Positions 15,306-45,435 of a DNA stretch of 64,000 bases are shown here, piece by piece (position 1 is the stretch's first letter; the number at the start of each line of letters is the position of its first letter). Source of the DNA: Tenrec ecaudatus. Taxonomy: Eukaryota; Chordata; Mammalia; Afrosoricida; Tenrecidae. The notes under the pieces were generated by a model, which was given only the letters and a program-made list of their open reading frames with translations, searched no databases and had not been told where the DNA came from. Made by a program: the position numbers and the translations under genes. Location of the stretch: positions 13,096,995 to 13,160,994 of the forward strand of contig NC_134541.1 in NCBI RefSeq assembly GCF_050624435.1, in the 5' to 3' direction.

Positions 15306-15326
15306 GTGGTCCCGCAGGACAGCCTA

Positions 15327-15775: not shown

Positions 15776-18700
15776 CTGGGGACAGCGACACAGCCAGCCT
15801 CAGACGGAAAGCTCTTCAAGCTGCAGCCGGTACAGGGGCTGGACCACACCAGCGTGGGTTTCCCAGTGCACGCGGCGGTAAATGCGGGCTCACTTACTAC
15901 TCTGTCCTGGACAGCTGCACTTGAAGTGGCAGAAACACATGAAACTGCCCAACAAAAATTACTAGGGAAGCACAAGTCAGCCTATTCTTATCTGGCTGAC
16001 TGGGGATGCCACCCCTGTCGGACTGTGCGTCTGAAAGAAGGCTTTGATTCAATCTACAGGGAGGGACTGTGAGGTCAGGGGGGAGAGAGATGCCAGCAGA
16101 CCGGGAAGCAGAACCTGGGTGTGGAGAAGCACCATGAGACTGATCTTGGCAGATGCACGAGTCAGTCTGTGCTTCACGTTACTGGGTCGCCCGACAGTGC
16201 TAAAAGTACTCACTGAGTGCTCTGGCGATGGCAGGAAACGAAGGCCAAGGCCAAGCGGCCCACACTCCTGAGACTAATTCACAGTCCACCTGCTTCACCC
16301 TGGGATGGGGCTGTGCTAATCATCCTCAAGGGGCCAGCTCTGAAGGGACAGGGCAGGTGTTACTGCTCCGCCGGGGCTCTCTGTGCACTGGTAGACGCTG
16401 CTCACTGAGCACATGGCACATGCCAGATGGGGGCTAAAAGGCCCCATCCTTGCCTTGCCAGTGGCTGGCCATGGCCTTGGTGACTTAAATAGGCGACTGT
16501 GGTCAATACGTGCAACTCGTAACCCCTCTCCCAGGGGCTATGGCTCTAGTCCGGAAGCCTGTCTGCTGTCACGCTGTGGGACAGCATGAGTGTAGGGGTG
16601 TGTGTTTTAAGCCAACCACCTTTGAGCTATTAGGTAGAGAGAAGGCAGCAGAGATGGGGAAAAAGGGCACGCTCCAGGGAGCAGGGATCACAAGAGGCGA
16701 GGGCTTTCCCCCAGAGCCAACGGAGAGAAAGCTTTCCAAGGTTGGTGCCCTGGTTTCAGACGTCTGGTCCCTCCAGGGAGGGACGGCGTCTGTCTGAGGC
16801 CCCACTGTGGAGATTCTGCGAGAGCAGCCCCTGAGGACGACCGAGAAAGGCTTAGCAAGAGAAGGCTTCAGGTCAAGTTTCATGCAGATGATCCAAGGGG
16901 ATTCTTAAGGACCATTAAATTAATCCTCCTTCGTTTCTCTGACGGGGACCATTTGAGAAGCCTCATGTGCCTGTGCGCGCTCTCTGGGCATGGATGGAGC
17001 GGGCTTGGCTGCCTGGGGAGACCTAGTGAGTAACAATCTGTGACGTCTCTGCCTGCGGCTGTGCGGAGCGCTGTGCAGACACCATCTTGTGAATTTCAAT
17101 CCCCGCAGCGCTCTCAGGAAGCTATGTATGCTTGTCCCCAGTTGATAGACAAAGACTGGAGATGGACGTGAAGTTTCCTTTCAGGACGGCCCAGGCAGGA
17201 AGTGGCTCAGACCCAGAGCCCACACTGCTGCCCGCGGTGCCACTGGTGCGACGAGGAGTGGACGAGTCACTGTTGGGTTTACTTTCCTCCCAGCCCCAGG
17301 CTGAGACGCCCTGGAACCCAAGCCCACACCCAAGTTTCTGGAATGGCTACCTGGGGCTCCTCCCACCCTGGGACCCCTCTGAAGACCATGACACTTGCTG
17401 CGGGTGGCTCATCCCGAAACCTGAGTTTGGAGGACAGACAGAGAATGGGGACAACTGACAAGGAGCTGTTGGGGACTGAGGGGGGGATGTGTCCAGATTT
17501 TCCTCAGGATTTCTTGCTTTTCCCTGCTTCAGGCTGCCCACACCCCCACAGGTCGGCCTCGCTGTCTGTTGTGGTCGGTACAACACGGTTCCTTCCAAGA
17601 GTCGGGTCTGCTCACGGGGCCGGGGCCCTAAGAGCCGACTGAGGATGAATGACGATATCTTGGCAAGACAAGGTGCGCCTCTGAGCCACTGTCACCCAGG
17701 CAGTTCTCACTCACAGCCGCCTGCCCTGCCAGCACCTGCAATCTGCAGAGGGTCTGAAGGGAAAGTAGATCCCAAGGAGATCCAGGAGAAAGGGAGGCTC
17801 TGCAGCCATGTGTCAACAGCAGGGACAGAGCTGGGAGGCAGTAAAAAGGAGGCTGAGGGAGGAACGCAGACCAGAGGCCTGCGCACACCACAATCAACAG
17901 CCATTCCGGGGGGCCTCGGGCCAATAAGATGCCAGAGAGCCCAGGCAGGGCCTCATTCATTTTCTCTCCATCCCAGTCCCCAGACACGTTTCTCTACTGC
18001 CAATGCGACTCCTTGTCCCTTCTCAAAGGTCTACTTTAATCCTGTCTGTTCCCGCACCCCCCAGTCCACTTAGAACACTGTCTCCCAGACTTTGATCATG
18101 AGAGGCATCTGAGCAGAGATTCCAGGGGGTCCTTCTGGCTCGACCCCCTGCCAACAATTTGCCTTTCCACCCCAGAGAGAGGGAGCCAGAAGCAACACTT
18201 TAACAAGGCCCCCAGGTGGTTCTGACGTGTGTGTGTGTGTGTGTGTGTGTTCAGTTACAATGATCATTCCGATTCAGTCTTTCCGGAGTGGGAAGGTCTG
18301 TCTCTGGGATGAGTCCCCTGGGTGGGTCTGGGGTGCAGGCAAGGGCCTGCCAGTCTTCACTGTCAACACGTGCCCAAGGTCACATGGAGACGCACTGAGG
18401 GGGGCAGGGGAGCAGAGCAGTGAAAACCAAGCGAGCTCATTATGAGTTGTCCCAAAGGGTGGGAAAGCGCGATCTGTCCCACAGTTGGCGGTTTTGCGCA
18501 GACGCATTATCTTTGTTTCTGTGCATGATTCTCTGACATGAGATGACCCATGACAAGACTCATCTAACATGAAAACACAGGAGGCGTGCACACATCAAAG
18601 CAGATCCCAACGTACCAGCACACTGGAAAATTAAAAGCCAACAAGAATCCTTTCCGAGGGCTCTCCGTTCACTCATTCCCTTCTTCCCCTCCCCTCCACG

Positions 18701-18861
18701 TTTATATGTGTATGATCCCCCCCAACAAACTCAGGTTGAGCAGAAGGTCTATGTATCTGTTGACTCTGAACAGGAAGCAGTTACAGAAATGAATCAAGAA
18801 CATGTGATTATCAACCTACAAGTAAGTAATTTAAATAAAAAAAAACAAGGCAAATACTTAC
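15776..18861 (-). other. SLC9A8 intron 12
   Basis: GT-AG intron. A MIR fragment is likely at 17065-17165 (ATCCCCGCAGCGCTCTCAGG, then TTGTCCCCAGTTGATAGAC), and a (GT)12 run lies at 18227-18250. No AfroSINE is evident. The rest is unassigned. Confidence 0.65.
18227..18250. repeat. (GT)12 microsatellite
   Basis: Uninterrupted dinucleotide run on the + strand. Confidence 0.95.
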
Positions 18862-18944
18862 TATGCACCAGATGACAAAGGAAATTTCAAACTTGTGAGG
18901 GAAACTGAAAATGGACAGGCCAAGAAAGGCGAACACACACGTTT
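18862..18944 (-). CDS. SLC9A8: SLC9A8 exon 12
   Basis: 83 nt, residues about 359-386. It completes Glu and reads TCVFAFLGLSIFSF, then PHKFEISFVIWCI. It encodes one membrane segment, a short loop and the start of the next segment. Acceptor after CTTTGTTTCAG; donor GTAAGTAT. Phases fit exons 11 and 13. Confidence 0.95.
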
Positions 18945-21339
18945 CTGAAACAAAGAATATGTATTATGCAGACCCTGCCACCTGTGCCACCCCCCCACCC
19001 CCCAAATAGGGCATGACGTTGTTAAGCAGGTAAGCATTCCGAAGGAAGTTGGAATCCACCACAACACTTGGCTTATTTTCTGAAAATCTTGCAACCAGTG
19101 TACTGGGACCCTCTCCTCTGCTCTTTAGAACCTCCTGGCTGAAGGCGACTTAGGTAAGCAAATGCCAGCTGCCCAGGGAAGATGGCGGCGACAGCGATCT
19201 GCCCATTGAGGGCTGTTACCAGCTTTCTTGCCAGTCGGAGTGCGCAGTGAGGGAAGACACACGCCTGCCAGGCTCAGAGCGGGGCTCCCGCCCAGGAGTG
19301 ACATGAATGTAACTTTCTGGAGGAGCGAACATGTCCAGTTCTTGGCTCGGGCTGCAAGCGACAGTCTGGTGGATTCCACTTTGCTGTAGGAGTCACAGGT
19401 GGATTTTAAGAAGCGCACCTTGTACGTTTCTGATGCCACGCTCCCTGCTCAAATGGTGACATCCTAAGTAACTAGAGAGGGGCAAAGATCGCATTTTAAA
19501 GTAGGCCATCACCATAAAACGGTAAAGCGGCTGTTTTGCAAATGTCTGTCTTTTTAACGAGGAGCCGTGATGGCACTGTTAATTAGGGTCACGGGTTGGG
19601 CTAACTGTGACCAAGGTCAGCAGTCAGAAACTACCAGGCGCTCTGCGGTGCAAACAGGCGGCTTTCTGTTCCCACACCGAGTCACAGTCTCGGAACCTGT
19701 CCCACCGGGTGCCTGGGAGTCCGACTGACTGGACAGCAGTGAGTCCTTTGAACCAAAGTGCAGACGCTGGACCACGAACTCCCGTCTCTCCCTGAGCTTG
19801 TCTCTTAGCTAATACATGTGTCTGAGCACTGTCAGAGGGGCCGTAGGGGTTTCCCAGGAGGCGTCTCTACGCCCTGGACAATTTACCCATCCTCAGTGAA
19901 AGGACTTTCAGCTTGTGCCTGGTTCTGCTATCACCACCACAAGTAGCTCAGACCAAGGGAAGATTCCTGATGGGGGGAGTTGGGGTGAAAGAGCCAGTTC
20001 AGACAGATGGTACCAAGAACCTCCCACCTGCCCGATTCGGGATGGTGCCAGCACACACTCCCATCCGCACGACCCGCTGTGCACACACCCTGGCGGGAGG
20101 GGATATCGTCAAACTCAGACTGCGCCAATCTGGTGGGTAAATGTCTGATGCACCTTTTGCTTTACATTCTTTTCATGGTGAGGGTCAGAATCGCTAGGCC
20201 TGGTTTGTTTCCTTCGTTCGTAATGTGTTTGCTGTGTTGAGATGCCCCACAGAACATGTCTGTGTGCAGAATCCAGTGGCCACGATGACATCTTCACCCA
20301 TGCTCCTCGTCTGAGCGGTCTAAACCTCTCTCCTCCCAAGTGTCCTAGCTCGTCTTGCCAGTCGGATGTGGTCAATTTGATCCCCGAGAGACGTTCCTCA
20401 GAGAGCACAGTGCTCAAGGCAGACTTTGTTTAACTAGTTAGGCCAGACTTGTCTGGTTTACAAAGACACTGTCAAGGTTTCAGGTTTGGGGGCACCCTCC
20501 AGCTTCTGTGGCGCCAGAAAGTCTGAGTTCCATTAGCTGTGGCTTTCTGAGGGCCGTGCTCTGACGAGATACCCACGTGACCAGGCATGAAGAGACGGCT
20601 TCCAGCGGTGTCCCTTGGTTAGGGGACCGTGGGTAGGCAATTCGACTCCAACGCCTCAGCTTCCCTGTCTGCAGGTGGGGCCGAAACCTCTGTGTGGCCT
20701 GCCCCCTGGACACAACAGCAGGGAGCTAGCGCTTCAGAACTGGGCAGATCCCCCTGCGATGCCAGGGGACACTGATGCCCATAGCGAGGACCTAGTCACT
20801 TTGGGACCAGCTTAAAGAGACAGTGTGCGGGTGGCTCCTCCACGCCCAGGTCTGAACGAGGGAACAAGTGCCTGTGCACACGTGTGCGCAGGAGGGGAGT
20901 GCGCTCAGGTAACGGGGGTTCTCCAAGCTAGGCCCTTCAAGATGCTCTTGTGAACACAGGTAGGGCCTGTAGACAGGTTTGGGAAATGGTCTCACCAAGT
21001 CCTCAGAAAGGCACACGCACAACCTTCCCGCTGATAAACTCATTCCGCTTCAGTTAACCCAACGTTCCCCAGGCTTCTTTCTACCCCCACCCATAGACTA
21101 CATTTTTTGGGATTGTTACTCTACCACTCGAAAAATGCACGCACCTCAAATGTTCCTAACTTGTCGTTCTTCTTGGCTCTGGTCTTAGAACTGGAGGCGT
21201 CTGTCTACAGCCTCAGGGGTCACGGTTAAGAGGAGCAGACAGAGGACGAGAGTGAGGATTTCAGGTGCCTGCTAGAAGCCCTGGCTGACTCCTACGGGAG
21301 GCGAGGAGGGAAGGTGAGCCCCGCCGGGGCAGCACTCAC
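18945..21339 (-). other. SLC9A8 intron 11
   Basis: GT-AG intron with one AfroSINE at 19559-19747; no other recognised element. Confidence 0.7.
19559..19747 (+). repeat. AfroSINE
   Basis: Starts CGAGGAGCCGTGATGGCACT, contains AAGGTCAGCAGTCAGAAACT and ends GACTGACTGGACAGCAGTG. Diverged but near full length. Confidence 0.8.
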
Positions 21340-21456
21340 CACACATGAAGGCCACACTCCGCAGGGTCTGCTGCATCAGGATCTGGGTGACCGGGGAGAG
21401 GTTGTGGTGTGTGTAGTGGGACATGACGATGCCGGAGAACAGGATGGCCATAATGC
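21340..21456 (-). CDS. SLC9A8: SLC9A8 exon 11
   Basis: 117 nt, residues about 320-359. It completes Gly and reads IMAILFSGIVMSHYTHHNL, then SPVTQILMQQTLRSVAFMC. It contains the conserved helix with FSGIVMSHY, typical of the cation/proton antiporter fold. Acceptor after CCCCCCAG; donor GTGAGT. Confidence 0.96.
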
Positions 21457-22429
21457 CTGGGGGGGACATGGGGACCAAGAGCACAGATGTGAACAGTAGG
21501 CCAGCACCATCACGAGGCACCAACTAACACCTCACCCTTCTTCACTCGGGGAGCAAGTGTTTTACAAACGTGAAGAAGGGACTGCGGCCTGTGGTTCTCC
21601 CGGGGGCTTCAGAGGAAGGTCCAGGGCCTCTCTCTGGCAGCTTCCTGGACGGCTGGGTGGCCCTGAACCGACCGACTGCCCCTCTCCAGTCCTGTCCTGT
21701 ACTTCGCCAGAGAGGCTGGCACAGAGGGACGGACTGGCCACTTGCTCTGCTGCCCTAGGTGGTGGACGGGGATGAAGGCTCCTTGGTGGGCAGCCACCTG
21801 TGGGATTGGAGGCCTAAGGCTGACCAGTCTTATTTCTGTTTTTTTAAGAGATGCCAGAGTACGTTTCTCATGGGCCACCTCCCAGCTCTCAATGATAGCA
21901 GCCAGCTCAAGTGCTGGGATGTTCCTGGATAGATGCACACCCCCTCTGGGTGCTGAGTTGGGACCACGCTCTCACTTGTGCCCTGGACCTACTGGTGCTA
22001 GAAATGAACATCTAGCCAAGCACACACTATCACGCCCCCCAGGCCTGTCTGGAGGTTAGGGCACCTCTCAAGTTCTGGGGGTCAAAGGAGAGAGTCAGGG
22101 GCAGTCGTGGGTCCAGAAGTCTGAGGAACAGCTCCAGGGTCTGCCCTCCATGCCCTCCCCGAGCAGAGAAAACATCTCCATCCCCAATCCACCTTCTTCC
22201 ACTGCAGCTGCCATGGAATAGGCCACCGACACCACAGAAGGGTCCCCGGGCAACCTGGGCATTTAAAAACTGTCCTGTTAGGAGGCATTCCTGACGTGTC
22301 TAGCTTTTGAAGAAGGCACAGTCACTCGGGCAAGCAGGCAACAACAGAGTCAAATGTTCAGCCTTCTGGAGGGGAGGAGGGTGGGAGTGCATCCTTGTCT
22401 CTAAAATAAACACACCCACCGACTCGGGC

Positions 22430-22575
22430 GACCCTGGACTCGGGCCCAGGGGGTTCCCAGACCAACTCTTTACGAGAATAGAAAGCCTTGTCTCTCTCTT
22501 TAGGGGTGACTGGTGGTTTAGAACTGCTGGCCCATCAGTTATCGGCCCAACCTGCAACCACTATGCCACCTTGTA
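22430..22575 (-). repeat. AfroSINE, partial
   Basis: Shows ACGAGAATAGAAAGCC, GACTGGTGGTTTAGAACTGC and CAACCACTATGCCACC. Confidence 0.75.
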
Positions 22576-24679
22576 ACTTCTTTAACTTTATGTGTAAACT
22601 TATCTAAAGTCCCCTTCTAGTTGCCGTGTCACGACAGAAGCAGATGCCAACCACGACACGGTGTGCTTACCACTGCCTGCGCCACTCCCCGGGGGACCTG
22701 CCAGTCTCGTCCCAAGCTTCTGATGTCATGCACACTCATCCTCTGTCCCCACACGTCCTGTCCTCTGTCCTCCACTCGATAGCCACTGCCCGCCGGCCCC
22801 TGTGTTTATAAAGCGGTGTCTGCACAGGGCCAGGATGGAGTGGGGACACAGCGAGTCCTCTGAGCCAGGGGCAAAGTGGCCCTCACAGCCCCTTTATAAA
22901 GGACTCAGCCGGTACAACCTGAACAATGATTCTGAGAAGAGGCAACGCCTGCTGGGCAAGAATTCGGGAGATGATCGAGAATTTTCTGTTTTCTAAAATC
23001 GGGACATTTTCAGGGTGAAAGGCAGTGTTGCTAAGTTACTAAGCTAGAACGAAAGGGGCAACCAGGGCAGGTGCCCGAGGGGATGTGGTCACCCTGGTGG
23101 CACGCCAGGCACTGCTGCCCCTGCCGAGTCTTCCCCACACCAGTGCCTGTGCGCCTGCACACTAGGCTGGCACTTTCACGGGCTCTACTGTATAGGAAGA
23201 AGTGGTTAGGTCTGTTGCCGGAGGTCCTGTAGCCAAAGAGGCGGGGCTGGGACCCAGACCTGCGTCTGTCCGGTTCCACAGCCTCAGTTCATCACCACGG
23301 TGTCTCGAGCATGTGGTTTCAGGTGAGTGAGTCACAGGGAGGGGGTGCCCAGCCTCCTGTGACCATCAGAAGACGGGGGCAGGGGACACACAAAGGCAGC
23401 AAGAGCACCATGCTCTCCCATCTTTGTCCTCGTCCCTCTGGGAGCCTGCGTGCCTGTGTGCACTCCGGGGCGCCCCCAGCAGGTACAGCCACGGTCCCCA
23501 AGGAAAGGGACAGTCTCAGGACAGGACCAGCAACATGCTCTCGGTGGGCCTTCGCCACCAGATGTAGCTTCACCTCAGAGTTCAGAAAAACATGAAGTGA
23601 CAAAAGTGAGGCTAGCCCAGTGACTCACAAGTAGATATATATGTGAGCACCACAACTCAGTACAGACAAAAGGGAACTGGATGCAGCTACTGAATGAAAC
23701 TGCCCTGGCGATGACCTGGTTTGGGATTTAAGCCCAACAAAACCCTGAGGTGTACAGAGGGTGCTCACTTGCTTACTCACTCGCTCAGGGAGCGGAGACT
23801 GGCCAGCTGCCCTGGGCTCCCTGCGAGCGGGATCTGCCCACAGCGCCCCTGACGTGACGGAGGTGGTGAGACGTGGGAAGAGAACACCCAACCCCGTCAT
23901 CTGAGCACCAGCTGGGCCTTCCACTTGGCCCATGAAGGACCCCATCCTGCCACAAGCAACAACAAAACCGGAAGAAGCGATGGAACAAGACAGTTTCCCC
24001 ACACTAGCCACCACGCAGGGTTGCCTGGAGATGCCCAACAGAAGGGGACCCACCGGAACCCTGGAGGCTGAGGCTCAGGGAAGGGAAACCAACACAGAGC
24101 TGGGCGGTCTGTCTTGCTGAGACAGACTGAGGGATGGGTTCCAGCTGCAGGAGGCCAAGGCTGAGAAGAGCAAGCGAATCTCCCTGAACCTGTGAGCACT
24201 GAGTCCACACACGTGTGGGATAAAAATCCTGAGGAAGAGCCACTCAAAAGGAAATTGGCCAAGCAATTCCCCACACTCTGGTCTGGCAAAGGGAGTTTGT
24301 GTTCCCACAGCCTGTAATGACCTCGCAGGACACTGGGGCCAGGGGAGGGTCATCGGAAGGGCACAGTCACCGAGCAAGTCGGTGTAGAAGTCTTGGACTA
24401 CTCTGGGCATGCCCAACAAAGCTAATAAATGAGCCCGGAGAGGATTCAACAGCTTCTAACAACAGAGACCAGAGCTCTCCAAAGGAACACAAGCAAATCT
24501 CGTGCTTAACAATCTAAAACTCCCAATCCAGTCTCTTCCAGGCACAGCACGGGGCCAGAGGATTTCCACGCACAAAAGCGCCAGGCTGGCCTCCTAGCTC
24601 ACTTCATACACAAAAGTTGACTTGGAATGTTGTAAGAGCGACAGCCCTAAAAACCCCAGGAGAAAACATCGGAGGAAGT

Positions 24680-25930
24680 CTTTGTCGATGGGTCCCTAGA
24701 AACAGCACCAAGAGCCCGAGCCACACAAGAAAAACATGGGTGCGCTGGACGCCATCACATTTACAAACCAACCAACCTGTGAATCCAAGAGCATTATTGT
24801 CAAGCAATGAAAGGGGAGCCCACCGAAGAGGAGGACTCGTACAGGAGAGTACTTTCCAGAACTCTCAGGGCCCCACACCACAAAGCTCCAACATGGCCAT
24901 TTAGAGCTGATGAAGCACTTGCACAGCCACTTCCACCAGGGAGGTGCACGAAGGGCCCACAAGCACAGGAGAAAAAGGCTCGACACCATCTGCGCTCAGG
25001 GAGACGTGAAACAAGCCCCCAGGGCAAGGCACTTCCCTCCCCCAGGGTGGCCCTTAGACAACAAAACTGAACACCAGTGCTGGCGCGGATGTGGAGAAAC
25101 TGGGGACTGAGTATGCTGTGGAGCGCTAGGGTGCGACTGCAATGGGAGGACCTAGAGTGTCCACAGGAGAGGAGGGAGCAAACGACGGCGGCAGCAGTTT
25201 CAGGACTGGGCAAGAATGTATTCCATTTGACGAGAACTCCGTACAAGCATCAGCCGTCCACCCACCCAAGCAGCTCAACAAACCACCAACCGACCGTAAC
25301 GAGAGGCACTCGGAAGCACAGTATCACGGCATTCCATCAGGACAGCTGGCTTACACAGAGGGGAAAAGCAGCGCCGGGAGGATGAGGAACATCGGCACTC
25401 CCTCGGACATTCCGGCCGGGGGGGATGAATGCCAAACGGCATAGGCCCTTTGGACCAGAGCTGGCAGTTTTTCCTTATCCTATGACCTAGCTACCTCACG
25501 CCTAGCATTTACTCCAGGCTACGGAAAACAAATGCACACATGTTCACAGCTGAAATCCGGAAATAACCCGAAGTCCACTGACTGGTGAAGGGGCGAGTGT
25601 CGCGGTATTTGAAAAATGTCTGTAACTAGAGGTACGTGCAAGAATACAAGTGAGTGAGAGGGATCAGATGCTGAGGCTGTGTGCTACAAGATTGCCATTT
25701 ATCCGGCTTTGGGGAACGTGCAAACTACAGTAACTGAACACCGAGAAGTGGGGGTCAGGGCAGGTAGGGCTGAGATGCAGCACAGGGACAAGGGAATGTT
25801 TAGGGGAGGGAAATGTTTACCTCTTGACTGTGGTGGCAGTCACATGACTGTACCTGTGTCAGAAGTGCAACTTAGGATGAGTGCACTGACTGTAGGTAGA
25901 TTAGCCCTCAACCAACTTTATATAAAATCG
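24680..25930 (+). repeat. L1 LINE, 3' part of ORF2 and 3' UTR, decayed
   Basis: Carries phrases common to mammalian L1 3' ends in order: a TGGCCATTTAGAGCTGATGA-like region, GCGCGGATGTGGAGAAACTGG, a tail with GGAAATGTTTACCTCTTGAC, then TGTGTCAGAAGTGCAACTTA. Frames are broken by many stops. The 5' limit is uncertain. Confidence 0.6.
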
Positions 25931-25974
25931 CATAGCAGAGATCAAAATCTCACTGCCCAGAACAAGGTTCTGCC

Positions 25975-26165
25975 CTGTGGTGTAGTAGGTTACGAGCCCA
26001 CAAGGTAACCCCACTCAGCAGTGTGGGCCCTCCAGCTTGCTCTGCAGAGGAGGCTTTTCGCTCCGGTAAAGATTTACAGTCTTGGCAACCCACAGGGGCA
26101 GTTCTACCCCGTGACTGCACAGACTCACAGGAGTCACACTGACTCGATGGCAGTGAGTTTGGTTT
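25975..26165 (+). repeat. AfroSINE
   Basis: Near full length: CTGTGGTGTAGTAGGTTACG, GTAAAGATTTACAGTCTTGG, GGGGCAGTTCTACCC and TGACTCGATGGCAGTGAG. Confidence 0.85.
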
Positions 26166-26565
26166 CTTTTGTTGCTGTTCTTCACCGACGGGAAGGGGTC
26201 AAACATGGAAGGTCAGCTCCCTGTTCAGCGCGGCTCCCTCCCTCCCTGTTGGAGAAGAGTCCAAGCTCCACATCCCTTCTGTTTCAGGCCGCTGCCCTCA
26301 CCACTCAACAAACCAGAGAAACTGTCGACTGTGGGCAGGAAGACTGAAGACCAGCTGAGCCAAGGCTGGCAAACAAGGGTGGGGTGAATGATTGGGGTGG
26401 GGTACCCAGGAACCATGACTCTTTGAGTGGCCCCTCCCTCCCCAGCCCCGATTTGGGTATCTTCGCTTGTCCTGTGCAAGGCCCTCAGTCCGCTGGGGAG
26501 CGGCGGCACTGGAGGGTGGAGTGGGGAAGCATGAACTAGCTGGAATGCCAGGTCCATCCCTTGCA

Positions 26566-26650
26566 GCTGTGACCACGGACCACTGACTTGGTCTCCCTGA
26601 ACTTTGGGTTCCTCACTAGTAAAATAAGGACCTTCCCAGTCCCTCCCTCC
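26566..26650 (+). repeat. MIR fragment
   Basis: Contains the MIR core order: CAGCTGTGACCACGGACCAC, then CCTGAACTTTGGGTTCCTCA and TAGTAAAATAAGGA. Confidence 0.6.
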
Positions 26651-26869
26651 TCAGACTGATGGGCGGGGGTGGGAGTGTCGTCAATGACAGACACGGTTTT
26701 GAATGTCTGGACCCCACCAGGCCTGAATCCAGATGCTTCCTTAAAGAGCCAACAGAGCCCCCTAAGGCTTAAGCTCTTCTGGGTCTCTGCTTCCTGGGAC
26801 TAGAAACGGCCTGATAGAACCTCCTTCACCAGGCAGGACAACACCCCCCACCCCCCAACTGCCACTTAC

Positions 26870-26975
26870 CCGAGAGGGAGATCCCTTCTGCGAGGCCATA
26901 CGGAAGATACGCAAAAATGATCATCATGCCAAACTCCAAGGAGGGCGTCTTCCTCAGGTCAATGTGCTTCAACAC
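26870..26975 (-). CDS. SLC9A8: SLC9A8 exon 10
   Basis: 106 nt, residues about 285-320: VLKHIDLRKTPSLEFGMMII, then FAYLPYGLAEGISLS and one base of Gly. Its acceptor is AC (26976-26977), not AG. It follows a U12 branch-like CCTTGAC at 26988-26994, about 13 bases upstream. This places the 3' end of the AT-AC intron here. Donor GTAAGT. Confidence 0.96.
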
Positions 26976-28261
26976 GTGAATGCCGTGGTCAAGGAGAGAG
27001 ACGCTAGGGACAGCTGACGAGAGACTACGGAGGGCACAGGACTGCTGCCTTCTGGTCTCCAGGGGAAACAGTGGGGACAGGAGGTGTCAGGACCCAAGAT
27101 GATGGCTGAAAACGCGTCACCACCAGCTCTTCTTTGTTGGGAGCCTGACGCCACTCGGCAGGGACTCTGCTCTGGAGATGTCACCTCCTCAGTTAAAAAT
27201 GGGGAGGGGGGATCAACTCCTTAGAAATGCTGGCTTGGAAACCGGGAGTGGACAGTCCCCCTGCCAGGCACCTGGCTTTCCTCAGCAGGAAGTCACTAGT
27301 GGGCACCCGCCAACCTGTTTCTAGAACTCTGGGGCTGGGGGCAGGGCACAAGGCCCCATCAAAGAGCCCTTTCCTGTTCTTGGAGACGGCCGCACGCAAG
27401 CCCTTGAAAGGAGAGAACAAGCCACTCGTTCAAGTGTCTTCTTCGCCTGCCCGCTGAATTCGCTTCATTCAAATAGGTGATCCTTTCCCTTCCTTTGAAA
27501 AGGGCAAGTAAAATAGGGTGGCAAATGCTGAACTGGAAACTGTCCTTTCCCCCCACCCCCCATTCTCCCATTCTGTTGATCGGTACTGTAAGAGAAGCTG
27601 TGAGCCAATTCAATAGCACCATTAGGCTTCTGGACAGCAAGGTTTTTGGGAAACGGAGCAGGATGGCACAGAGCCTCTTTTGGCCAAAGGCGGTGGCTCC
27701 CAGTTCCTATTGTAAGTGCGGGTCTGTCTCAGTGGGGTTGGCCTTAAGAGGGAGCCTCTCCCCTGCTCTAGCTGGGAAAGCTCCCAGGTTTGTTCAGTAT
27801 CAAACTCGGCAAGTCAGTGGGAAGGAGCTGCCTTTCCAAAGTTCCTTCTCCAGCCCTGCCAGATACCCACTTTGGTGTGATCACCATTTTCTCAACTTGA
27901 CATTTTCGGAGAAAACTAACTCCCAATTTTCAGAGTGTGAAAGGGAGGGGCTGCCGTGGCCGTCGCATGACCGAGGTTCTCGGTCTGGGAACTGAGAGCC
28001 CCTCAGAACCAAGGTTGACAGCCAACAAGGCACACACTTTTAAAGCCGGGGAGAGTCCTTCACGTTAAACGAAGAAACTTTGAGTTTCCACTAACGTGTT
28101 CCAAAGCCAAAACCGAGCATACCACTCCCACTCTTCTCCGAGGAAAGCCCTGACCAGTCAGCCGGTCCAGGGACTGAAGGTGGCGAGTGGGGCACATGGG
28201 TCAAGGACCATCTACGCTGCCAGGCCTGTGTCCTGGTGGTTCTGTCACATGAAAAGGATAT
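26976..28261 (-). other. SLC9A8 intron 9, U12-type AT-AC intron
   Basis: The donor on the - strand is ATATCCTTTT (from 28261 leftwards), identical to the U12 AT-AC consensus. The branch element is CCTTGAC and the intron ends CAC. Splicing in phase 0 joins GCATTA to GTGTTG (ALVLK). Minor introns have been described in several Na+/H+ exchanger genes (memory). It also contains one copy of a local direct repeat at 27508-27862. Confidence 0.93.
27508..27862 (+). repeat. Diverged direct repeat, copy A
   Basis: Shares its order with copy B at 29538-29902: TAAGAGAAGCTGTGA, CAATAGCACC, GCCTCTTTTGGCCA, GTGGGGTTGGCCTTA, CCTCTCCCCTGCTCT and CCCTGCCAGATA. Identity is perhaps 75-80 percent by eye, with indels. 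It is not a family I can name. Confidence 0.8.
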
Positions 28262-28400
28262 TAATGCGGAAATTAAGCCCGTGAGAGTGCCGAGAGCTGC
28301 CGAGCCGAAGAACATTTTGAGGAAGTAGCCAAGGGCTTGTAAAAACGTCTGCCACCCACTGACATCTGACATGTTTTTCCTGGTTAAGCCTTCAGCTGTG
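28262..28400 (-). CDS. SLC9A8: SLC9A8 exon 9
   Basis: 139 nt, residues about 238-284. It completes Asn, then TAEGLTRKNMSDVSGWQTF, LQALGYFLKMFFGSAALG and TLTGLISAL. It has a large loop with an NMS glycosylation-type sequon, followed by a membrane helix. Acceptor after TTCCTAG. Donor is ATATCC (U12). I recall Asp in human where Gly stands in LQALGYFLK. The length is not a multiple of three, so skipping it would shift the frame. Confidence 0.95.
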
Positions 28401-29344
28401 CTAGGAAGTCAAAAAGAGACAGGAGTTATGATGTTACAGAGATTGAGACCATTTCCTGTGAGTGTGTGTGTTCATTTATTTGTCCTGCCGGCCGGCTGGC
28501 TAGCCAGCCCCACAAGTAACTGCTCACCGACTGCACACAGCCACCGCCATTCCTGTTTGCTGGCTCAGAGACAGGCGCGCTGTGACTGCCCTCAGGGAGC
28601 GTCCCAGAGCCTCATTTGGGTGCCTAACAAGGCATGCACTGATGGCCACTGGGTGGCAGGCAAAGGGCTGTGCAGACACTGGTTCTCCCTCAAGCTGAAA
28701 GGGCGTCTTGATGGGCTAGGGGCTGGGTTTCAGCTCACGACAAGGCGGAGTGCCCCAGGCGATGAAATGAGGCGGCCAGGTAGAGGGCCCATCACATGCA
28801 GAGGAGAGCGGGCAGGGCCCCGCACATGGGGTGCACTCTGGAGCCCGTCAAGGACACGGGTCAGAGAAGTGGGGGTGGGTGGGGAGCGGGAGTCACAGCC
28901 GAGACAGTGGCAGGACACAGCTAGAGAAGCAGGCAGGGAGCAGCGGGTGTCTGGTGAACCAAGGTGAGGAGCAGGCCTTTCCTCTGCTGGCCCTGGGGAG
29001 TCCGTGCGTGTGCTCCGTGGAAGACACCTGGGAGAAAACCTGAAACAGAGGCTACAGCCTGAGGTCAGGTCTGAAGTGAGCTACTTGGAGAGGAGGGAGC
29101 TGGGACCCCAGCTAAGGGTGGCTCCGGGAGGCAGAAGAATGGACAGGACTTCCTTTTCATGACAGCAGAACACCTCTGAAAGGTCAGATGCCATTATGTT
29201 CCGTGGCTAGTTTTATCCTCAAAGAGAAAACCAGGACACCGTTCACATCAGGGGCTATGCTCATTAAATCTCCTCCGATCCAAGTCCCACCATGTTGCTT
29301 CCTCCAGTCCTGAGCTCTCTCCAGACACACATTTAGGCTTCTTA

Positions 29345-29510
29345 GAAACAGCCCTGGTAGTGCAGTGGTTTAGTGCTCTGCCACGAACCAAGAGGTCAGT
29401 GGTTCAAACCGCCAGCAGCACTGTGGGAAAGATTACAGCCTAGGGAACCCCGCTGGGGCAGTTCTACTCTGCCTATGGGATCTCTGTGAATCGGAAGGGA
29501 TGCCATGCCA
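29345..29510 (+). repeat. AfroSINE
   Basis: Begins AACAGCCCTGGTAGTGCAGT, with GAGGTCAGTGGTTCAAACC and GGGGCAGTTCTACTCTGCC. Confidence 0.85.
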
Positions 29511-29537
29511 ACCAACAGGTTAGTCTTCCTGTACGAG

Positions 29538-29902
29538 TAAGAAAATAAGGTGGGAAACACTGAACTGAAAGTTCCCCCCGCCACCCCAATTCTCTAAGAG
29601 AAGCTGTGAACCACTTCAATAGCACCTTTAGACTTTTAGGCAGAAAGGATGGGAAACAGACAGGACGGCACAAGGCCTCTTTTGGCCATCTTTACAACTA
29701 GCGGCTGGAGGCCGCGGCGTGCCCAGAAGCACCGGTGCCTGTTCCTACTGTGAGTGTGGGTACGTCTCGGTGGGGTTGGCCTTATGAGAGAGCCTCTCCC
29801 CTGCTCTGGCTGGGAAAGCTTCCAGGTTTTGTTTCAGCACCAACTGGGGCAGTTGTTAGAAGGAGCTGCATTTTCCAGTTTTGTCTGCGACCCTGCCAGA
29901 TA
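29538..29902 (+). repeat. Diverged direct repeat, copy B
   Basis: Same order of blocks as copy A, with an extra segment after GCCTCTTTTGGCCA. It lies directly after an AfroSINE, on the other side of exon 9 from copy A. Confidence 0.8.
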
Positions 29903-31439
29903 GCCCCTCTGTACCCGAAAATACCCCCTCACCTTTTCCTCACAGTTCAGTCAATGCCACTTCCTCAGAAACCCCTGCCTGGACCCCTTTACACAGGCCG
30001 ACCCCTTTCAGAGGGTCTGCTGCCCACTTTGCCCCTGCAGTGCCGCTGCTACAGAGCCCTTTGTGCTGGGCCAGCAGGGGCAGCATGCGGCCATCTGAGG
30101 GCAGGGGGCTAGGCCAGCCACAGGCAGCTGTCAAAGCAGCACACCATTGTCATCACGGTCCTGAGAAGTCCCGCCCAGAGCAAAACTGACCTTTCTGTAC
30201 AATCTCCTCCTCTAGCCCTGGGACGACGTGCCGCACCATGAGGAATGCTGGCAGTCAGCATTCCAACTCTTAGGGAAAAATGCTTTCTTTTACTGGACCA
30301 GATCACCGTAGCACACAGGAATGCGGGCACAAGCCGGGGCTGGAGCTAGCAGTCTGAAAGTCAAGGTAGTGAAAGCAGAATCCAGCCTGAGCCGGGTCTG
30401 TGTCATTTTCCCACATTTTTCCCTCTGGGGTCTTGTTTGCTGCGCTTCCATCACCGCTCTTATTATGCCGGTCAATGGTCACAGTGACAAATCTAAGCTG
30501 GAAAGACTTTCTTTCACAAGTGAATGAAGACACAGGACAGGGCACTGTCCGCCACTTGGGATGGTGAAAACATGAAACTGGGATAGTGCACACACTCAGC
30601 TGCCAAAAAGGGGGAAACAATTTTTTATGAACTCTCAAGACCATGGCGGACTTGACCTTCTAACCAAGGAGAGCTGACACAGCTCCTCCCAGGGCTCCCT
30701 CTCTGCTGCTCAAGGCAAAAGGGAGACAGGTTCACACTCCCCCCACCCCACCGACCCTCAAGGCCCAGCTCAGGGGCCAACTGGTCTGTCCTTCACAGGG
30801 GTGTCTTTGCGTTGCAGCGTGTGTCTCAGCACTTGATTTCCTAGAGGCTGGGGTTCACAGTAGGAAAGCCTAACTCACTCCTTTTTGAGCCGTAATGTAA
30901 AATCAGTCTCCACTGAGTTCACTCTGACCTTTGAGCGGGCAGTGTGGAAAGCTTTGTCCACAGATCTCTGGGACCCCCTGGCCAGCCCAGATAGGGGCAC
31001 GCTCACCTTCGGGGACTTGCCTGGGTGTTCGCTTGGCACCTCACCACCTTGTTTAGAGGACCCCAAACAAATCCTGTGTTTCTCTTCAGCAACAGTAGAT
31101 GAATCTGCTGCTAATCACGATCTTGTCACAAATGTTCCTTGTTTTCTCTGCTCTATAATCAGCCATGTGGCCACCAACCCTCTGGACACCATGGTGGCTT
31201 CAGGCTGATGGCCTCCCTCATCAGGTGATCTCTCTCCCCCTTGTTTAAGACTTAGGACAAGGGGTATCTGTAAAATCCACTTGAAATTGGGTCTTTCTCT
31301 CTAAGAGTACAGCACCCAGCTCTTGCTTACTTCTCAATCAGCATCTTTCTCCAGCTTCAGTTTCTGTTCAAATCCACGTGGGGCTGAGTCCACGCCCTGT
31401 CCCCACCCTACTCCCACCCCCAGCAATATCTGGCACAAC

Positions 31440-31613
31440 AAATGCATTGCCTTCACAAGTCACTTCTGACTCACAAGACCCCACAGGACAAGCTGAACTG
31501 CCCCTGGGGAGGGGTTCCAAGATGACAACACCTTTCTCCCTCAGAGCAGCTGGTGGACTGGAACTGCAGACCTTGAGGTCAGCAGCCAGACGCCTCGCCC
31601 ACTACACCACCAG
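31440..31613 (-). repeat. AfroSINE
   Basis: ATTGCCTTCACAAGTCACTT, GAACTGCCCCTGGGGAGG, GCAGCTGGTGGACTGGAACT and ACTACACCACCAGG. Confidence 0.8.
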
Positions 31614-32689
31614 GTCTCGGAAGTCTGGCACACACACAGGGCCAAATGTTGATGGCTTGATGGCAGGCTGAGTGGCCTGGCTCATGGAGAGTTCAGGAGG
31701 CTGGGCTGGGTCTTAGGTTAGTGACATCCAACCCACTCTGTTACTAGCAGCAGTGATGGGAGTGGGGACTGGTCTTCAAAACCCAAACTAGCAATGACTC
31801 CTCCATTTTCACTGAAAAATATCTCCTAATCTCTAGCCTTTTTTTGTAGCAAAGGAGACCTGGGAAAATGTAGACATCCTCCTACCTCAGACAGATTTTT
31901 TTCTTTAAATAACTCAGAGACAAAGCAGCTGAGTTTCACTCTTAATATATAAAAATAGCTCAAGATGTCACCCCCAAATTGGGCAAAGTTCACAAATGTT
32001 CACTACGTGGAGCCAGGATGCGAGATGCAAGAGAAAAGCAGAAAGGGAAGCAGCCTTCAGCACGGACCTTAAATGAGAGAGACCAGCGCCGTGCAGCTTG
32101 GGCGAGGTTGGACGTGCACCGGGTGTGTTCACTTCTCAATGAAGGTACAGAAAAGACAATAATGGGGAACTGATTAAGTCAATCCACGAGAGGGAAATTT
32201 CAACAGCGGAATGGTGCCACCGACGAGCATTTTATCAATTCTGTGCAGCAGAAAAGAAAGTTACAGTCTGCTGTACGAGTGAGGTGGGGGGGGGGTGGAT
32301 CCGCGGAGCTGATTCTGGCTCCGAGCAGCCTCATGTAACCTTAGGCTGTAAGCCTGACCCCGTTATTTGGAAGCTTCTCAGTTAGTTCACTTTAGGATAA
32401 TACGCATTGAAAAAAAAAGAAGATGGAGAGGTCCCTGGGTTGGCATGTATATGTGTGTACATATTCTTATTCTGTACCATGTTCTGAGCCCAACAAAGGT
32501 AGAGATTTGAGAGATGAAGCATGTTTGTTGAGGAATCAAAAGTGCAGACCTGTGATTTCCTATGATGGGCAAGGAAGGCCCAGACAGACTGCGGCCTCCT
32601 GTGTCGCCTCACGGCTGGGACCAGTGTCCTCTGTGCGCATGAGATCTGTGCACAGGCTTGCTAGGAGTCAGCATCTCACAGCATCATAC

Positions 32690-32771
32690 CGCCAGCCCTT
32701 TCCTCCCCACGGGAGCCACAGGTGGGTTGGAACCACAGACCTTTTGGTTAATTAACCACTGCCCTACCAGG
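32690..32771 (-). repeat. AfroSINE 3' fragment
   Basis: GAGCCACAGGTGGGTTGGAA, CCTTTTGGTTAATTAACCAC and CCCTACCAGGG. Confidence 0.7.
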
Positions 32772-32863
32772 GTGTGGGGGGAGGTCAGGTGCTTGCAGGC
32801 ATCCTCTGTGAGGGCGGATCAGTTGCCAGACTGCAGTGAGCCCGCTCCTTGCAGTTAAGGAAA

Positions 32864-33450
32864 TGGACAAGCCTGCTATCATCGATTTGGTTCCTGTAGG
32901 TAGGGCTTACATCCTACTGATAAATGGTTGCTATGGAGATCCAGGAAACAGATCAAACCGGCTCCCTGACATCCAGTTATGCTGCCATCCTGAATCTAGG
33001 ATCCACCTATCTTGTCACATGTATACCCCCAATCCCTCCTCTTCCTATTAAGTGTATATCCCTAGATTGTCCCCCTCTGATTGCTGCATAACCTATAGTA
33101 CAGCCCCTTCCTGTGACGTAAGTCTGTACCTGTAATTAATGAGCTTGCACGCCCCCAAAGGTATATAGGCCTGGGTTAGCAATAGAGACCTCTCTCTCGG
33201 CCCCTCCCTTGTCCTCTTTTCCCCTGTTCCCTTTCCCCTTGTCCTCCTCCTCTTCCCCCTCTCTCCATGTGGACCACCAAGTGGGGCTGAGGTGAGCATG
33301 CTACCATGAAATGTGTCTGACTCCATTATTTTAACATCTCTTTTCTCTCTCATGCTCTCTATGACTTTATTATATCTCAACCGCACAATTGTGCCTATCG
33401 GACCCGTGATTAGTGGTGGGGGGCTGGCACCCACACCTCAAACTACACCA
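32864..33450 (+). mobile_element. Possible solo LTR of an old endogenous retrovirus
   Basis: A roughly 0.6-kb block has an LTR-like layout: an upstream U3-like part, a TATA-like GGTATATAGG at 33160-33169, a pyrimidine-rich leader-like stretch (33190-33270), and a T/A-rich 3' part. No internal viral coding sequence is present on either side. Exact ends and a target duplication could not be fixed, so it may be another retroelement. Confidence 0.4.
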
Positions 33451-33867
33451 GGGCTGAAGCATACATCTGCTTCAACCACACATGTATTTAAATAGATTCT
33501 CTGTGTAAATATGCCTTCTAGTAATGGATGATCTCTGGGTAGTGTGATTTTTAATTCCTGTTAATTTGCTTCTGAAGTTTGTTTTCTAAATTGTATGTGC
33601 AGAAAATACGTATTCCTTTCAGGATAACAAATGCCATTTCTGTACGTGTGACCATCAGGTTGGTGCTTCCGACCTGGCTTGGGTGGGTGAGTGGTGCCCC
33701 TACCCTGGTCTGCACAACTGCCGAGCACCCCTGGAAACGCAGCAACATTGGACAGGCTTTGGCCACAAGGGTGTAGTGTTCACAAAAGGCCACCAGGGGA
33801 AACAGAACCTGGGGCCACCACAGAAGAGGGCGGGGTGTCCAGCTGACTGCTGCTGGGGCCTTTTCAC

Positions 33868-34010
33868 ATAGTGTCATCCTTGACAATTCCTGCCTCACCT
33901 CTAATCCTCGGGAAGGAGACCCCTGTTTCCATTCTGGCCAAGGAGCTGGCCCAGGGCACACAGCTGTGAGACAGCACTGGACTCAGGTCAGTCTACTCTG
34001 AAGCTCGGGC
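33868..34010 (+). repeat. MIR
   Basis: CATAGTGTCATCCTTGACAA, then CCCAGGGCACACAGCTGTGA and CTGGACTCAGGTCAGTCTAC match the MIR order. Confidence 0.6.
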
Positions 34011-34552
34011 CCTCAGCCGAAGGCCGCTGTGTGTCCCACAGTCCAGCTTTGAGGAGGTCACCAGTTCCCACAGGGTGAGTGTGCTCAACAGCGATCCCAG
34101 CACAGAGGCATCACAGTGGCACGGAGCGAGAGAGCAACTGTGGAAATGCGCTTCTCCAGCAGAAGCCCCTACCCCGGGCTCCGTGCCCCAACCATTGCCA
34201 TCTCCGTTTGTTGGCATGGCTCTCTAGGTTGCTTGCCCACACAGGGCAGCAAGCAGTGCAAACAGAGTGCCAGAGAGTGGCTCTGTACCGCATAACCGCC
34301 CTTGAGAGGATCTCTGTCATTGAAGGTGAGTCATCAAACGGTCAGCGTTGGTCGGAAAAGGAAGCACATTTCTGATCCTGAAGGTTTACCATTTCCAGAG
34401 TCTCCTGAGAAGGTCCACACTAGTGGATATTAAGGCGGGGACACCTATTTACCCCCACTCTGTATGGTGCAGCTGTGACAACAGAGGCAGAGGCCAGAGC
34501 CAGGTGCTGGGTGGGGGGTGGGGTGGGCTGACTCCTGCTTTGGGCTACAACA

Positions 34553-34730
34553 GCGTTTCGTGTGGATTCCAACTCCTGGCGGCCTCGTGCGTGTCAGAGG
34601 AGGACTGTGCTCCAGGGGTGTTCAGTGGAGGGTTTCCCAGGAGCCGAGCACCAGGCCTTTCTTCTGCGACACCTCTGGGTGGACTAGAACCTCCAACTTC
34701 TAGGTCAGCAGCTGAGCACACCCACCGTCT
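34553..34730 (-). repeat. SINE fragment, AfroSINE-related
   Basis: GCGTTTCGTGTGGATTCCAA, AGGAGCCGAGCACCAGGCCT and CTAGGTCAGCAGCTGAGCAC resemble a second afrotherian SINE subtype also seen near 43430-43545. Confidence 0.55.
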
Positions 34731-35019
34731 GTCTGACCAAACTCTGATCCCTCAACCGGCTGCTGCTGCCCAGCGTCTGAGGAGCTGAAGAAAAACACCC
34801 CTTTCTGGGGCTCCCCCTAGACCATGCATCGGAGGCTCTCAGGGTGGACCTGGGAATGGTGCCCTCAACAAGCAGCCCAGGGAGTGCCAGTGAGAAGCCA
34901 GGTCCAGAAACCACAGCAACAAGGGACATCTCTCAAGGTGGCCTCTGCTCTCCTAATCACCCCTGGTCCCTGACAGCATTACTGGGGCAGGTCATGGCTC
35001 GGCAGGACAGGAGATCACA

Positions 35020-35460
35020 GACAGTAGTAGGTACATACTCTATCAATTTGAGCAAAGGGGTGGAGTCTAGCCTGTTAATCAGGTCGCAACCGGATGACCT
35101 CATTTGGGATAAATAACTCACGGGAGGTCAGACCCACTCTCCGCCGTCCCTTTCCTCTTACTGAGTCACTCGGAGAGCTGGTGGAGAGCTGTGCCCGTGC
35201 TGGGATGCTTCCACCGCCACCAGACCCACGAGACTGTCCACCCACCGGCCTGTGATCATCCTGCACTCGGCATCACTGCATGGCTGCGTGAGTCTAGAGG
35301 AATTTACGGGCTAGTATCAGACTTATGGCTAATATCAGACTCATCGACTTGATCTGGAGTGGGCTGGGATGTTTTCTCAACACACAATTGTTATTTTATA
35401 AAACTCTTTCTTATACATATATGAGTGTCCATGAAGTTGTTTCTCTAGTCACCCCAGATG
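35020..35460 (+). repeat. Unclassified interspersed repeat candidate
   Basis: Contains an internal near-repeat (ATCAGACTTATGG, then ATCAGACTCATCG) and a T/A-rich end (TTTTATAAAACTCTTTC). The composition suggests an LTR- or retroposon-type element, but I cannot name the family. Confidence 0.3.
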
Positions 35461-35554
35461 AACACGCGGACAGACGGCGATAAACCAGTCCCCCAGGGGA
35501 CAAGCTTTATCTTCTGGGAAGTATTTGCCCCTTTGTTTGAGACCCCACACTCAC

Positions 35555-35698
35555 TTAGTCAGGACAATTGACACGGCATCGTTGAGAATGCTCTCCCCAA
35601 AAACCAGCATGTTGAGCACTGGGTCCACGTGAAGGGCGTTGAAAATCGCAATCGTAGCCACGGGATCGACAGCAGATATCAGGGAGCCAAACGCAAAG
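35555..35698 (-). CDS. SLC9A8: SLC9A8 exon 8 (ion-binding core)
   Basis: 144 nt, residues about 190-238. [19 protein letters not shown] carries the Asp of the broken core helix (about D201). [16 protein letters not shown] carries the Glu and the Asn-Asp pair (about E225, N229, D230) that define electroneutral NHE exchangers. All key residues are present. Acceptor after GTGCCCCCAG; donor GTGAGT. Confidence 0.97.
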
Positions 35699-36591
35699 CT
35701 GGGGGCACAGAAAAGGCAGGGGGAGTTCTGTAGCCTGCATCACTTGGTCTAACTATCGAGAACAGTAAGGCCAGACACCGTGGTTATAAAACATAGCTGA
35801 AGAAGCTACAGAATAAGGTGTCCTTCTCTATGTGCAGTGCCCGCTCACTGACACTGTGGGTGAGATTGAACTGGGCCAACGGTGGGCTGGTGACCCCAGG
35901 CCGATTTCTCTGCTGCAGCCTGACCAACTGTGCACAACCACCGTCTATTAGGGAAGGCAGGGCCTGCACAGGGGCAGAGAAATGCTAGCTGGCTCACTCT
36001 CCCCTCGTCCAAGGCAAGTAATTCCTAGTTACGTGAGCCCTGAACATCTCCACCGTGGGCTCAACTCAATCTCACAGGAACAGGTCAAGCATGTGCTGTG
36101 TCGCCAGCCACCTGCTCCTGGATGATGCCCGGATGCCGGGGTGCCGCTACCCTCCATGGGGCTAGGAGCTCTCTTTTCCCCACAAGCTAGGCCCAGATAT
36201 GCTCGGCTGCCTTTGGCTTTCCTTCCGGTCAATTTGTTCATATGTCAAAACAATCTCCCAGCACAAGCTCCAAAATTTATGTCCTTGGGAAAACAGAAAT
36301 GGGATTATCAGAGGCTCATCCATCTCTTCAGGAAAGGGCACTAAGAATCTAGTTTCCAAGGGGCTGCTAGAGACTACGGAAAGACTTAAGGAAAGACCCC
36401 GGGGCTGAGCCCTGGGCCTTACCACCCAGCACTGTCCCAGCAGATAGACAGACAGAGATCGATAGGTATCAAGAGAATAGAGAAGTATGATTCTCCCCAC
36501 CCCCTCGGTCCTCCCTCCACCCCCACCCAAGAGGCAGTACAGAGAAAATGCCCCAGTCTGAGAAGTAGGCACATGATCATGAAGACTTTAC
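35699..36591 (-). other. SLC9A8 intron 7
   Basis: GT-AG intron of 893 bases; no repeat family recognised. Confidence 0.7.
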
Positions 36592-36626
36592 CTGTCAGTC
36601 ATGTTGAGTTTAGAGATTACATCGGC
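36592..36626 (-). CDS. SLC9A8: SLC9A8 exon 7 (35-nt small exon)
   Basis: Reads ADVISKLNMTD plus two bases of Ser. It encodes an extra-membrane loop with an NMT sequon. Acceptor TTTTATTTTACAG; donor GTAAAG. Too short to appear as an open frame, but phase and sequence fit exons 6 and 8 exactly. Confidence 0.95.
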
Positions 36627-37708
36627 CTGTAAAATAAAACACACGAACACGCACATTCAAAAAAACCCCAAAACTTCTTGGAGAACAGCCAAGAATATTA
36701 AAATACCCATTAGTGCCTTATTTCAAACTAATAAGGACATTAATCTTCAGTCCCCAGACCAGTTGGAAAATGAAGTCCCCAGGCTTATGCGTTTAAACGT
36801 GCGTTTCATCATCATCATCTGTCAAAAGGAGGGGAAAGAGTGCTACATTGTTTAAGCCCAATCAGCTGCCGTTTTCTTCTCTAACGTTTACTCCTATTTG
36901 CTACAAGGAGATGAGCAATGAAGAGGCCAGTTCCTTTTGTAGCCATATATCGAGGCACCAATAAAGGTGACAATCACAGGAATGGGCTTCAGGGGATACA
37001 ACGCCAGGCCTGACGCACATAAGAAAAGCCTGCCGGCTGCCCAGATGCCAGAACCTCCGAGTCAGCGAATTTCCTGTCCTCGATGGTGAAGCTGAACCAC
37101 CAGGCCTGGAGTCCCTTCAGGCACATTTGGTTACAGTGAGTTCAGACTCACTTGAATCCATGTACTGGGCATTTAGCGGACTGTGCTGGGAAGCGGCTTA
37201 GGAATGGCAGAAACCCTCAGAATCAAATCACACAGGTGGCCCGCCTAGCACCGAGTGGGCAGATTCAGAATCTTCTTTGGCTTTAAGAACATTTTACTAC
37301 ACTTGATCTCTGCCAAAAGGACGAGAAGCGATAATATACATTTTAATGAAAAAATTACAACAACAAAAAAGCCACATTTAACCCTGATTTGTTAACCTGA
37401 CAAGTGATGTCCTAGTTTGAGAGGGTTTGTGATATACATTTGATTTCCAGCTTTTCCAACACTTTTGATACCACTGGTTTTCAATGAAGGTAAGAGATTT
37501 TTAGATAACAGAAAAGATTCCCTCAATTCCAGATGCCATAGTTCTGGTGGGAGCCTGAGAATCCATTCCCTTGTCTCTACTGTGGCTGGATCGCCTTCCA
37601 GGAGGGTATTTTAGCCCGACAGTGCAGCTCAGGCCCTGTGGCCAGCCAGCCTCTCCAGTAGGTGGACAACGCAGGATTGCTGAAGTTATTCAAAGCTGGC
37701 TTTCTTAC
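36627..37708 (-). other. SLC9A8 intron 6
   Basis: GT-AG intron of 1,082 bases; A/T-rich, no repeat family recognised. Confidence 0.7.
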
Positions 37709-37810
37709 CTGACCCAGGAAATAAATGCCCCCACCAACGACAAATGCAGAAATCGCTGTGCCAAAAACAGCAAACAGGGTGATGGAGCCAATGTTTTGGA
37801 AGAAGTTACC
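37709..37810 (-). CDS. SLC9A8: SLC9A8 exon 6
   Basis: 102 nt, phase 0 on both sides, residues about 145-178: GNFFQNIGSITLFAVFGTAI, then SAFVVGGGIYFLGQ. It covers two membrane segments of the exchanger core with the Gly-rich turn. Acceptor after CTCTTTCAAACAG; donor GTAAGA. Confidence 0.96.
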
Positions 37811-38584: not shown

Positions 38585-38770
38585 GCTGTTCGCGTGCGCT
38601 GCAGTTGACCCCACTCGCGGTGACCCTGGGGGACTGGGGAGGACGGTCTCCAGAGGCTCCCAGGGCAGAAGCAGCGGGCTGCATTGTTCTCCACAGCGCA
38701 GCTGGTGGGTTTGAACCAGGTGCCTTTTAGTGAGCAGCTGGACACTTACCTACTGTGCTACCAGAACCCG
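38585..38770 (-). repeat. AfroSINE-related SINE
   Basis: GCGCTGCAGTTGACCCCACT, CAGCTGGTGGGTTTGAACCA and CTACTGTGCTACCAGAACCC. Confidence 0.7.
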
Positions 38771-40008: not shown

Positions 40009-40010
40009 TA

Positions 40011-45432: not shown

Positions 45433-45435
45433 GTG

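What the first reader, a model, noticed from the sequence alone, without database searches (positions are those of the whole stretch)
26976..28261. U12-type AT-AC intron between SLC9A8 exons 9 and 10
On the - strand the intron starts ATATCCTTTT and ends CAC. CCTTGAC lies about 13 bases before the end, matching the minor-spliceosome donor, branch site and acceptor. Splicing in phase 0 gives ALVLK, as in the known protein; no GT-AG alternative keeps the frame. Transport function of this gene therefore depends on the minor spliceosome.
Basis: partly seen in the sequence, partly recalled or inferred. Interest (0 to 1): 0.75.

Follow-up and report, generated by a model that had tools for sequence, protein, structure and literature searches.

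The report
Minor-spliceosome intron in transporter gene SLC9A8
One intron of the SLC9A8 sodium/proton exchanger gene carries the signals of the rare minor splicing machinery; it is real and well formed, but it looks like a conserved feature of a gene already cited for having such an intron.

Summary
The window's minus strand carries SLC9A8 (NHE8) exons 2-16, giving a 571-residue protein up to 98% identical to listed NHE8 records. Intron 9 (28261-26976, 1286 nt) is AT-AC, phase 0. Its donor ATATCCTTTT is a near-perfect U12-type match. TCCTTGAC puts the branch A 13 nt before the intron end, within the published optimum of 11-13 nt. The other 13 introns modelled look U2-type (12 GT-AG, one GC-AG). 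The junction cannot be slid by a base, and 0 of 56 frame-keeping, stop-free GT-AG pairs restore the protein. Protein records agree: 93 of 120 listed homologues have the direct junction. Of 15 others that keep GLISAL and then diverge, 13 continue ISF, as ATATCCTTT would be read. A review says U12-type splicing of SLC9A8 can look unperturbed while cryptic U2-type sites are activated. That review already names the gene, so this is known and of low interest. The window is from, or close to, Echinops telfairi.

The parts
28262..28400 (-). SLC9A8 exon 9 (139 nt), ends ...TCC GCA TTA in phase 0
   Evidence: gene model; homology
26976..28261 (-). U12-type AT-AC intron 9, 1286 nt
28252..28261 (-). U12-type 5' splice site ATATCCTTTT
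26988..26995 (-). U12-type branch-point sequence TCCTTGAC; 13 nt follow its A to the intron end
26976..26977 (-). AC acceptor
26870..26975 (-). SLC9A8 exon 10 (106 nt), begins GTG TTG AAG
11228..63216 (-). SLC9A8 exons 2-16 (15 exons modelled); exon 1 was not located and presumably lies beyond the window; the stop codon TGA ends at 11228

Best explanation
Intron 9 of SLC9A8 is a minor-class (U12-type, AT-AC subtype) intron. From established knowledge of this class, U11 and then U6atac pair with ATATCCTT, U12 pairs with TCCTTGAC, and the minor spliceosome joins GCATTA to GTGTTG. This restores the NHE8 reading frame inside the exchanger domain. It is probably ancestral in tetrapods, not specific to this species. 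If it is not removed, translation runs 56 codons into the intron and stops, losing much of the transport domain. The sequence anatomy, the junction and the pattern in protein records are shown here. Use of the minor spliceosome in this species and the effect on transport are inferred.
For: Donor 15.4 of 15.9 bits as U12 and -11.6 as U2; branch motif 11.4 of 14.9 (recalled matrices); the other 13 introns modelled look U2-type. 13 nt follow the branch A; the published optimum is 11-13 nt, and the defining features are the 5' splice site and branch sequence (PMC3584512, passages). The boundaries cannot be slid by a base, and 0 of 56 stop-free in-frame GT-AG pairs restore the protein. The direct junction is in 93 of 120 listed homologues, including the Echinops telfairi record P0109, whose first 309 aligned residues are identical to the model. 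Of 15 other models that keep GLISAL and then diverge, 13 read on as ISF, consistent with a conserved ATA TCC TTT, in records named as mammals, birds, a turtle and a frog (names; residues). Three models read the acceptor side as SLT..(V/A)IY before VLK, consistent with TCCTTAAC upstream of a TAC end (P0044, P0071, P0115). SLC9A8 is named among genes with U12-type introns (PMC8329584). Retention gives a stop after 56 codons; the Na_H_Exchanger match spans residues 61-461 and the junction follows residue 274.
Against: No RNA reads were available. The scoring matrices are approximations recalled by me. ISF and SLT are protein footprints; the DNA in those species was not read, and the SLT readings imply 14 nt after the branch A, one more than here. 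Two of the 15 diverging models continue IVI, not ISF. The pyrimidine content before the acceptor (65%) does not separate this intron from the others (53-88%). For the dependence claim, PMC8329584 says that U12-type splicing of SLC9A8 can appear unperturbed.
Confidence: 0.97

Rival explanations
1. A U2-type AT-AC intron, spliced by the major spliceosome, as some sodium-channel introns are.
For: AT-AC ends alone do not define the class (PMC3584512 passage), and U2-type AT-AC introns exist (PMC2831892 passage).
Against: The sodium-channel U2-type AT-AC introns all have G at +5 (PMC2831892 passage); here +5 is C in an exact ATATCCTT, with a U12-type branch motif 13 nt from the end.
Confidence: 0.01
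2. The real junction uses nearby GT-AG sites and the AT-AC reading is only an apparent fit.
For: 56 of 1440 GT-AG pairs keep the frame without a stop. Several nearby AG acceptors have pyrimidine contents of 0.71-0.82, as good as real ones. 27 of 120 listed homologues lack the direct junction.
Against: None of the 56 pairs restores ALVLKHIDL, and the best GT donor scores 6.4 bits against 7.0-11.2 for the gene's 12 GT-AG introns. The 27 odd models disagree with each other (13 ISF read-through, 9 five-residue skip, 5 acceptor-side only), whereas 93 agree on the direct junction. I take the odd ones to be mostly annotation pipelines forced to GT-AG ends; this is inference, and some may be real cryptic transcripts.
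Confidence: 0.01
3. The donor also uses a second, proximal branch site (28207-28200), giving a 75-nt AT-AC mini-intron and an unproductive, truncated transcript.
For: The same TCCTTGAC 8-mer lies 54 nt from the donor, with AC ends 14 and 21 nt after its A. Removing 75 nt keeps the frame until the same intronic stop.
Against: TCCTTRAC is not rare in this window (10 against 5.18 expected). No orthologous intron DNA was available to test conservation. A 75-nt intron is short. The bases just upstream of the motif (GCGTAGATGG) are not pyrimidine-rich.
Confidence: 0.04

Closest known systems
SLC9A8 U12-type intron in other vertebrates
   Same: Same gene; a review and an editorial name SLC9A8 in this context (passages: PMC8329584; PMC10565666). 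Same junction in 93 of 120 listed homologous proteins.
   Different: The species; TCCTTGAC rather than an apparent TCCTTAAC in three relatives, inferred from protein footprints only. The passages seen do not give the intron number or its ends.
AT-AC U12-type intron of SLC9A7 / Drosophila Nhe3
   Same: Same transporter superfamily and AT-AC subtype (PMC2831892 table, passage).
   Different: I read the table's columns as fly intron 5 and human intron 12. I did not test whether it is at the homologous position.
Voltage-gated sodium and calcium channel U12-type introns
   Same: U12-type introns in ion-transport genes (PMC2831892 passage).
   Different: Unrelated gene family (recalled, not tested).

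Membership tests
U12-type (minor) introns, AT-AC subtype | 5' splice site close to ATATCCTT | tested here: met
   ATATCCTTTT exactly at the exon 9 end; 15.4 of 15.9 bits with a recalled matrix
U12-type (minor) introns, AT-AC subtype | branch-point sequence close to TCCTTRAC, about 11-13 nt before the acceptor | tested here: met
   TCCTTGAC with 13 nt after its A; optimum from PMC3584512 (passage)
U12-type (minor) introns, AT-AC subtype | no distinct polypyrimidine tract next to the acceptor | tested here: inconclusive
   65% pyrimidine in -20 to -4, against 53-88% in the gene's 13 other modelled introns
U12-type (minor) introns, AT-AC subtype | AT and AC ends at a homology-defined junction that cannot be slid | tested here: met
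U12-type (minor) introns, AT-AC subtype | conservation in orthologues | tested here: met
   By protein footprints only, no intron DNA read: direct junction in 93 of 120; ISF read-through in 13 of the 15 that keep GLISAL and diverge
U12-type (minor) introns, AT-AC subtype | removal depends on U11, U12, U4atac, U6atac | not testable with these tools
   needs RNA from cells with a minor-spliceosome defect
SLC9A8 / NHE8 gene | whole-length similarity to NHE8 and Na_H_Exchanger domain | tested here: met
   97-98% identity over 100% of the query to the five best records; PF00999 E=9.6e-67

The most novel reading that the evidence does not exclude
Intron 9 has two complete U12-type branch/acceptor units for one donor, one 13 nt before exon 10 and one that would excise a 75-nt AT-AC mini-intron. 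Choice of the proximal unit would give an unproductive transcript and so tune SLC9A8 output by competition within the minor spliceosome.
Probability: 0.03. Interest if true: 0.4.

Novelty: already known. Interest (0 to 1): 0.1.

Why it matters
It confirms that a raw-sequence reading of a minor intron can be exact. It also suggests a practical point: 27 of 120 listed homologues do not show the direct junction here, which I take mostly as automatic annotation stumbling on an AT-AC intron. For biology it adds one more species to a conserved, known case.

Tried and rejected
A Pfam scan of short exon pieces (most of exon 9; exon 10 plus 18 intron bases) gave no hit; the assembled protein hit clearly. 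Rfam (gathering threshold) and tRNA scans of the window gave nothing. The genome search for PF00999 in the window's own genome did not complete twice because the machine was busy; I then left it, since the tool's text says it holds prokaryote genomes, so whether this genome is held is unknown. A coordinate slip in a script gave a wrong exon 9 slice; it was corrected. In one search my pattern filed P0001 as 'other' for one substitution; one search counts it as direct. Paper search for NHE8 with U12 found 0 papers. SLC9A8 has 0 occurrences in the main text of PMC7968993, although the review cites that paper in the sentence about SLC9A8; supplements could not be read. Search listings show 0 occurrences of SLC9A8 in the CENATAC paper PMC8280824. 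Considered and rejected: a U2-type AT-AC intron and GT-AG alternatives.

Full report
What is there. The minus strand of the window carries SLC9A8 (NHE8) from exon 2 to the stop codon in exon 16. The result is one open frame of 571 residues plus a stop. Exon 1 was not located; exon numbers assume one upstream exon. Database comparison lists NHE8 proteins with up to 98% identity over the full length, and Pfam gives Na_H_Exchanger at E=9.6e-67. P0109, recorded as Echinops telfairi, matches with 2 differences in 532 aligned residues and lacks the residues of exon 11; the next closest records differ at 13 or more positions. Four matches to a recalled SINE-like pattern (0.01 expected) were also found.

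The intron. Intron 9 runs from 28261 to 26976. It starts ATATCCTTTT, ends ATTCAC and is in phase 0. TCCTTGAC has 13 nt between its A and the intron end, inclusive of the AC. PMC3584512 (passages seen) gives 11-13 nt as the optimum and says that the 5' splice site and branch sequence define the class. With approximate matrices of mine, the donor is 15.4 of a possible 15.9 bits as U12 and -11.6 as U2. The other 13 introns modelled score -7.2 or lower as U12 and 4.0 or higher as U2; 12 are GT-AG and one, intron 14, is GC-AG. The pyrimidine content upstream of the AC is not distinctive (65%, others 53-88%).

Chance. The motifs taken singly are not rare in 64 kb: 2 ATATCCTT against 0.57 expected, 10 TCCTTRAC against 5.18 expected. 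The case rests on their exact placement at a junction fixed by protein homology. The junction cannot be slid by a base.

Alternatives. None of the 56 gives SALVLKHIDL, and the best donor reaches 6.4 bits, below the gene's 12 GT-AG introns (7.0-11.2). Some nearby AG sites have good pyrimidine content (up to 0.82), so cryptic use of them is possible. A U2-type AT-AC intron is disfavoured because the known sodium-channel cases have G at +5 (PMC2831892 passage), whereas this has C.

Orthologues. I had no vertebrate genome to search, so I used protein records. One search found 3059 proteins and listed the best 120. Among these 120, 93 show the direct exon 9/10 junction. The other 27 are 13 with ALISF read-through, 9 with a five-residue skip, and 5 with acceptor-side residues only. 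Of the 15 that keep GLISAL and then diverge, 13 continue ISF and 2 continue IVI. ISF is what ATATCCTTT encodes in this frame, and it appears in records named for four bats, a mole-rat, an elephant shrew, a bear, four birds, a turtle and Xenopus tropicalis (Latin names; common names are mine). Three acceptor-side readings contain SLT before (V/A)IY|VLK, as TCCTTAAC upstream of TAC would give, with 14 nt after the A. These may be footprints of gene predictors that disallow AT-AC ends, or of cryptic transcripts; the underlying DNA was not read. They suggest that the same donor exists across tetrapods.

Consequence and mechanism. Retention would add 56 codons and a stop, after residue 274 of a protein whose exchanger domain spans 61-461. 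Nonsense-mediated decay is expected from general knowledge. In human cells depleted of CENATAC, 92% of A-type minor introns showed increased retention, alternative major-site use, or both (PMC8280824 section 10), and A-type introns splice less efficiently (section 11). So sensitivity of this intron is plausible. Against strong dependence, PMC8329584 says that in cases such as SLC9A8 the U12-type splicing 'appears to be unperturbed' with only cryptic U2-type activation (passage).

Known or new. SLC9A8 is named as a gene with a U12-type intron in PMC8329584 (passage) and in an editorial, PMC10565666 (passage). Searches on SLC9A8 with U12-type, minor intron, AT-AC and ZRSR2 found only these two papers. 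An AT-AC U12-type intron in another NHE gene, SLC9A7, is also in print (PMC2831892 passage). The finding is correct and ordinary.

Noticed in passing
28200-28207, minus strand: A second exact TCCTTGAC lies 54 nt from the AT-AC donor, with AC ends 14 and 21 nt after its A; use of the first would excise a 75-nt intron.
   Followed up: partly
13700-13701, minus strand: Intron 14 starts with GC (ATG|GCGAGT); it is the only GC-AG intron among the 14 modelled. The Echinops telfairi record P0109 is contiguous across this junction, with substitutions at residues 476 and 489.
   Followed up: partly
36627-36668, minus strand: 29 of 120 listed homologues have a 14-16 residue insert before exon 7. Here the matching upstream stretch reads GFF-stop-MCVFVCFILQ, so that longer isoform looks unavailable in this animal.
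   Followed up: partly
21340-21456, minus strand: The Echinops telfairi database isoform P0109 lacks exactly the residues of exon 11 (310-348), although the exon is intact here.
   Followed up: no
38907-40133, minus strand: A long simple repeat reads as HSLTHPLT... in overlapping open frames of 130 to 278 codons (whose output was cut).
   Followed up: no
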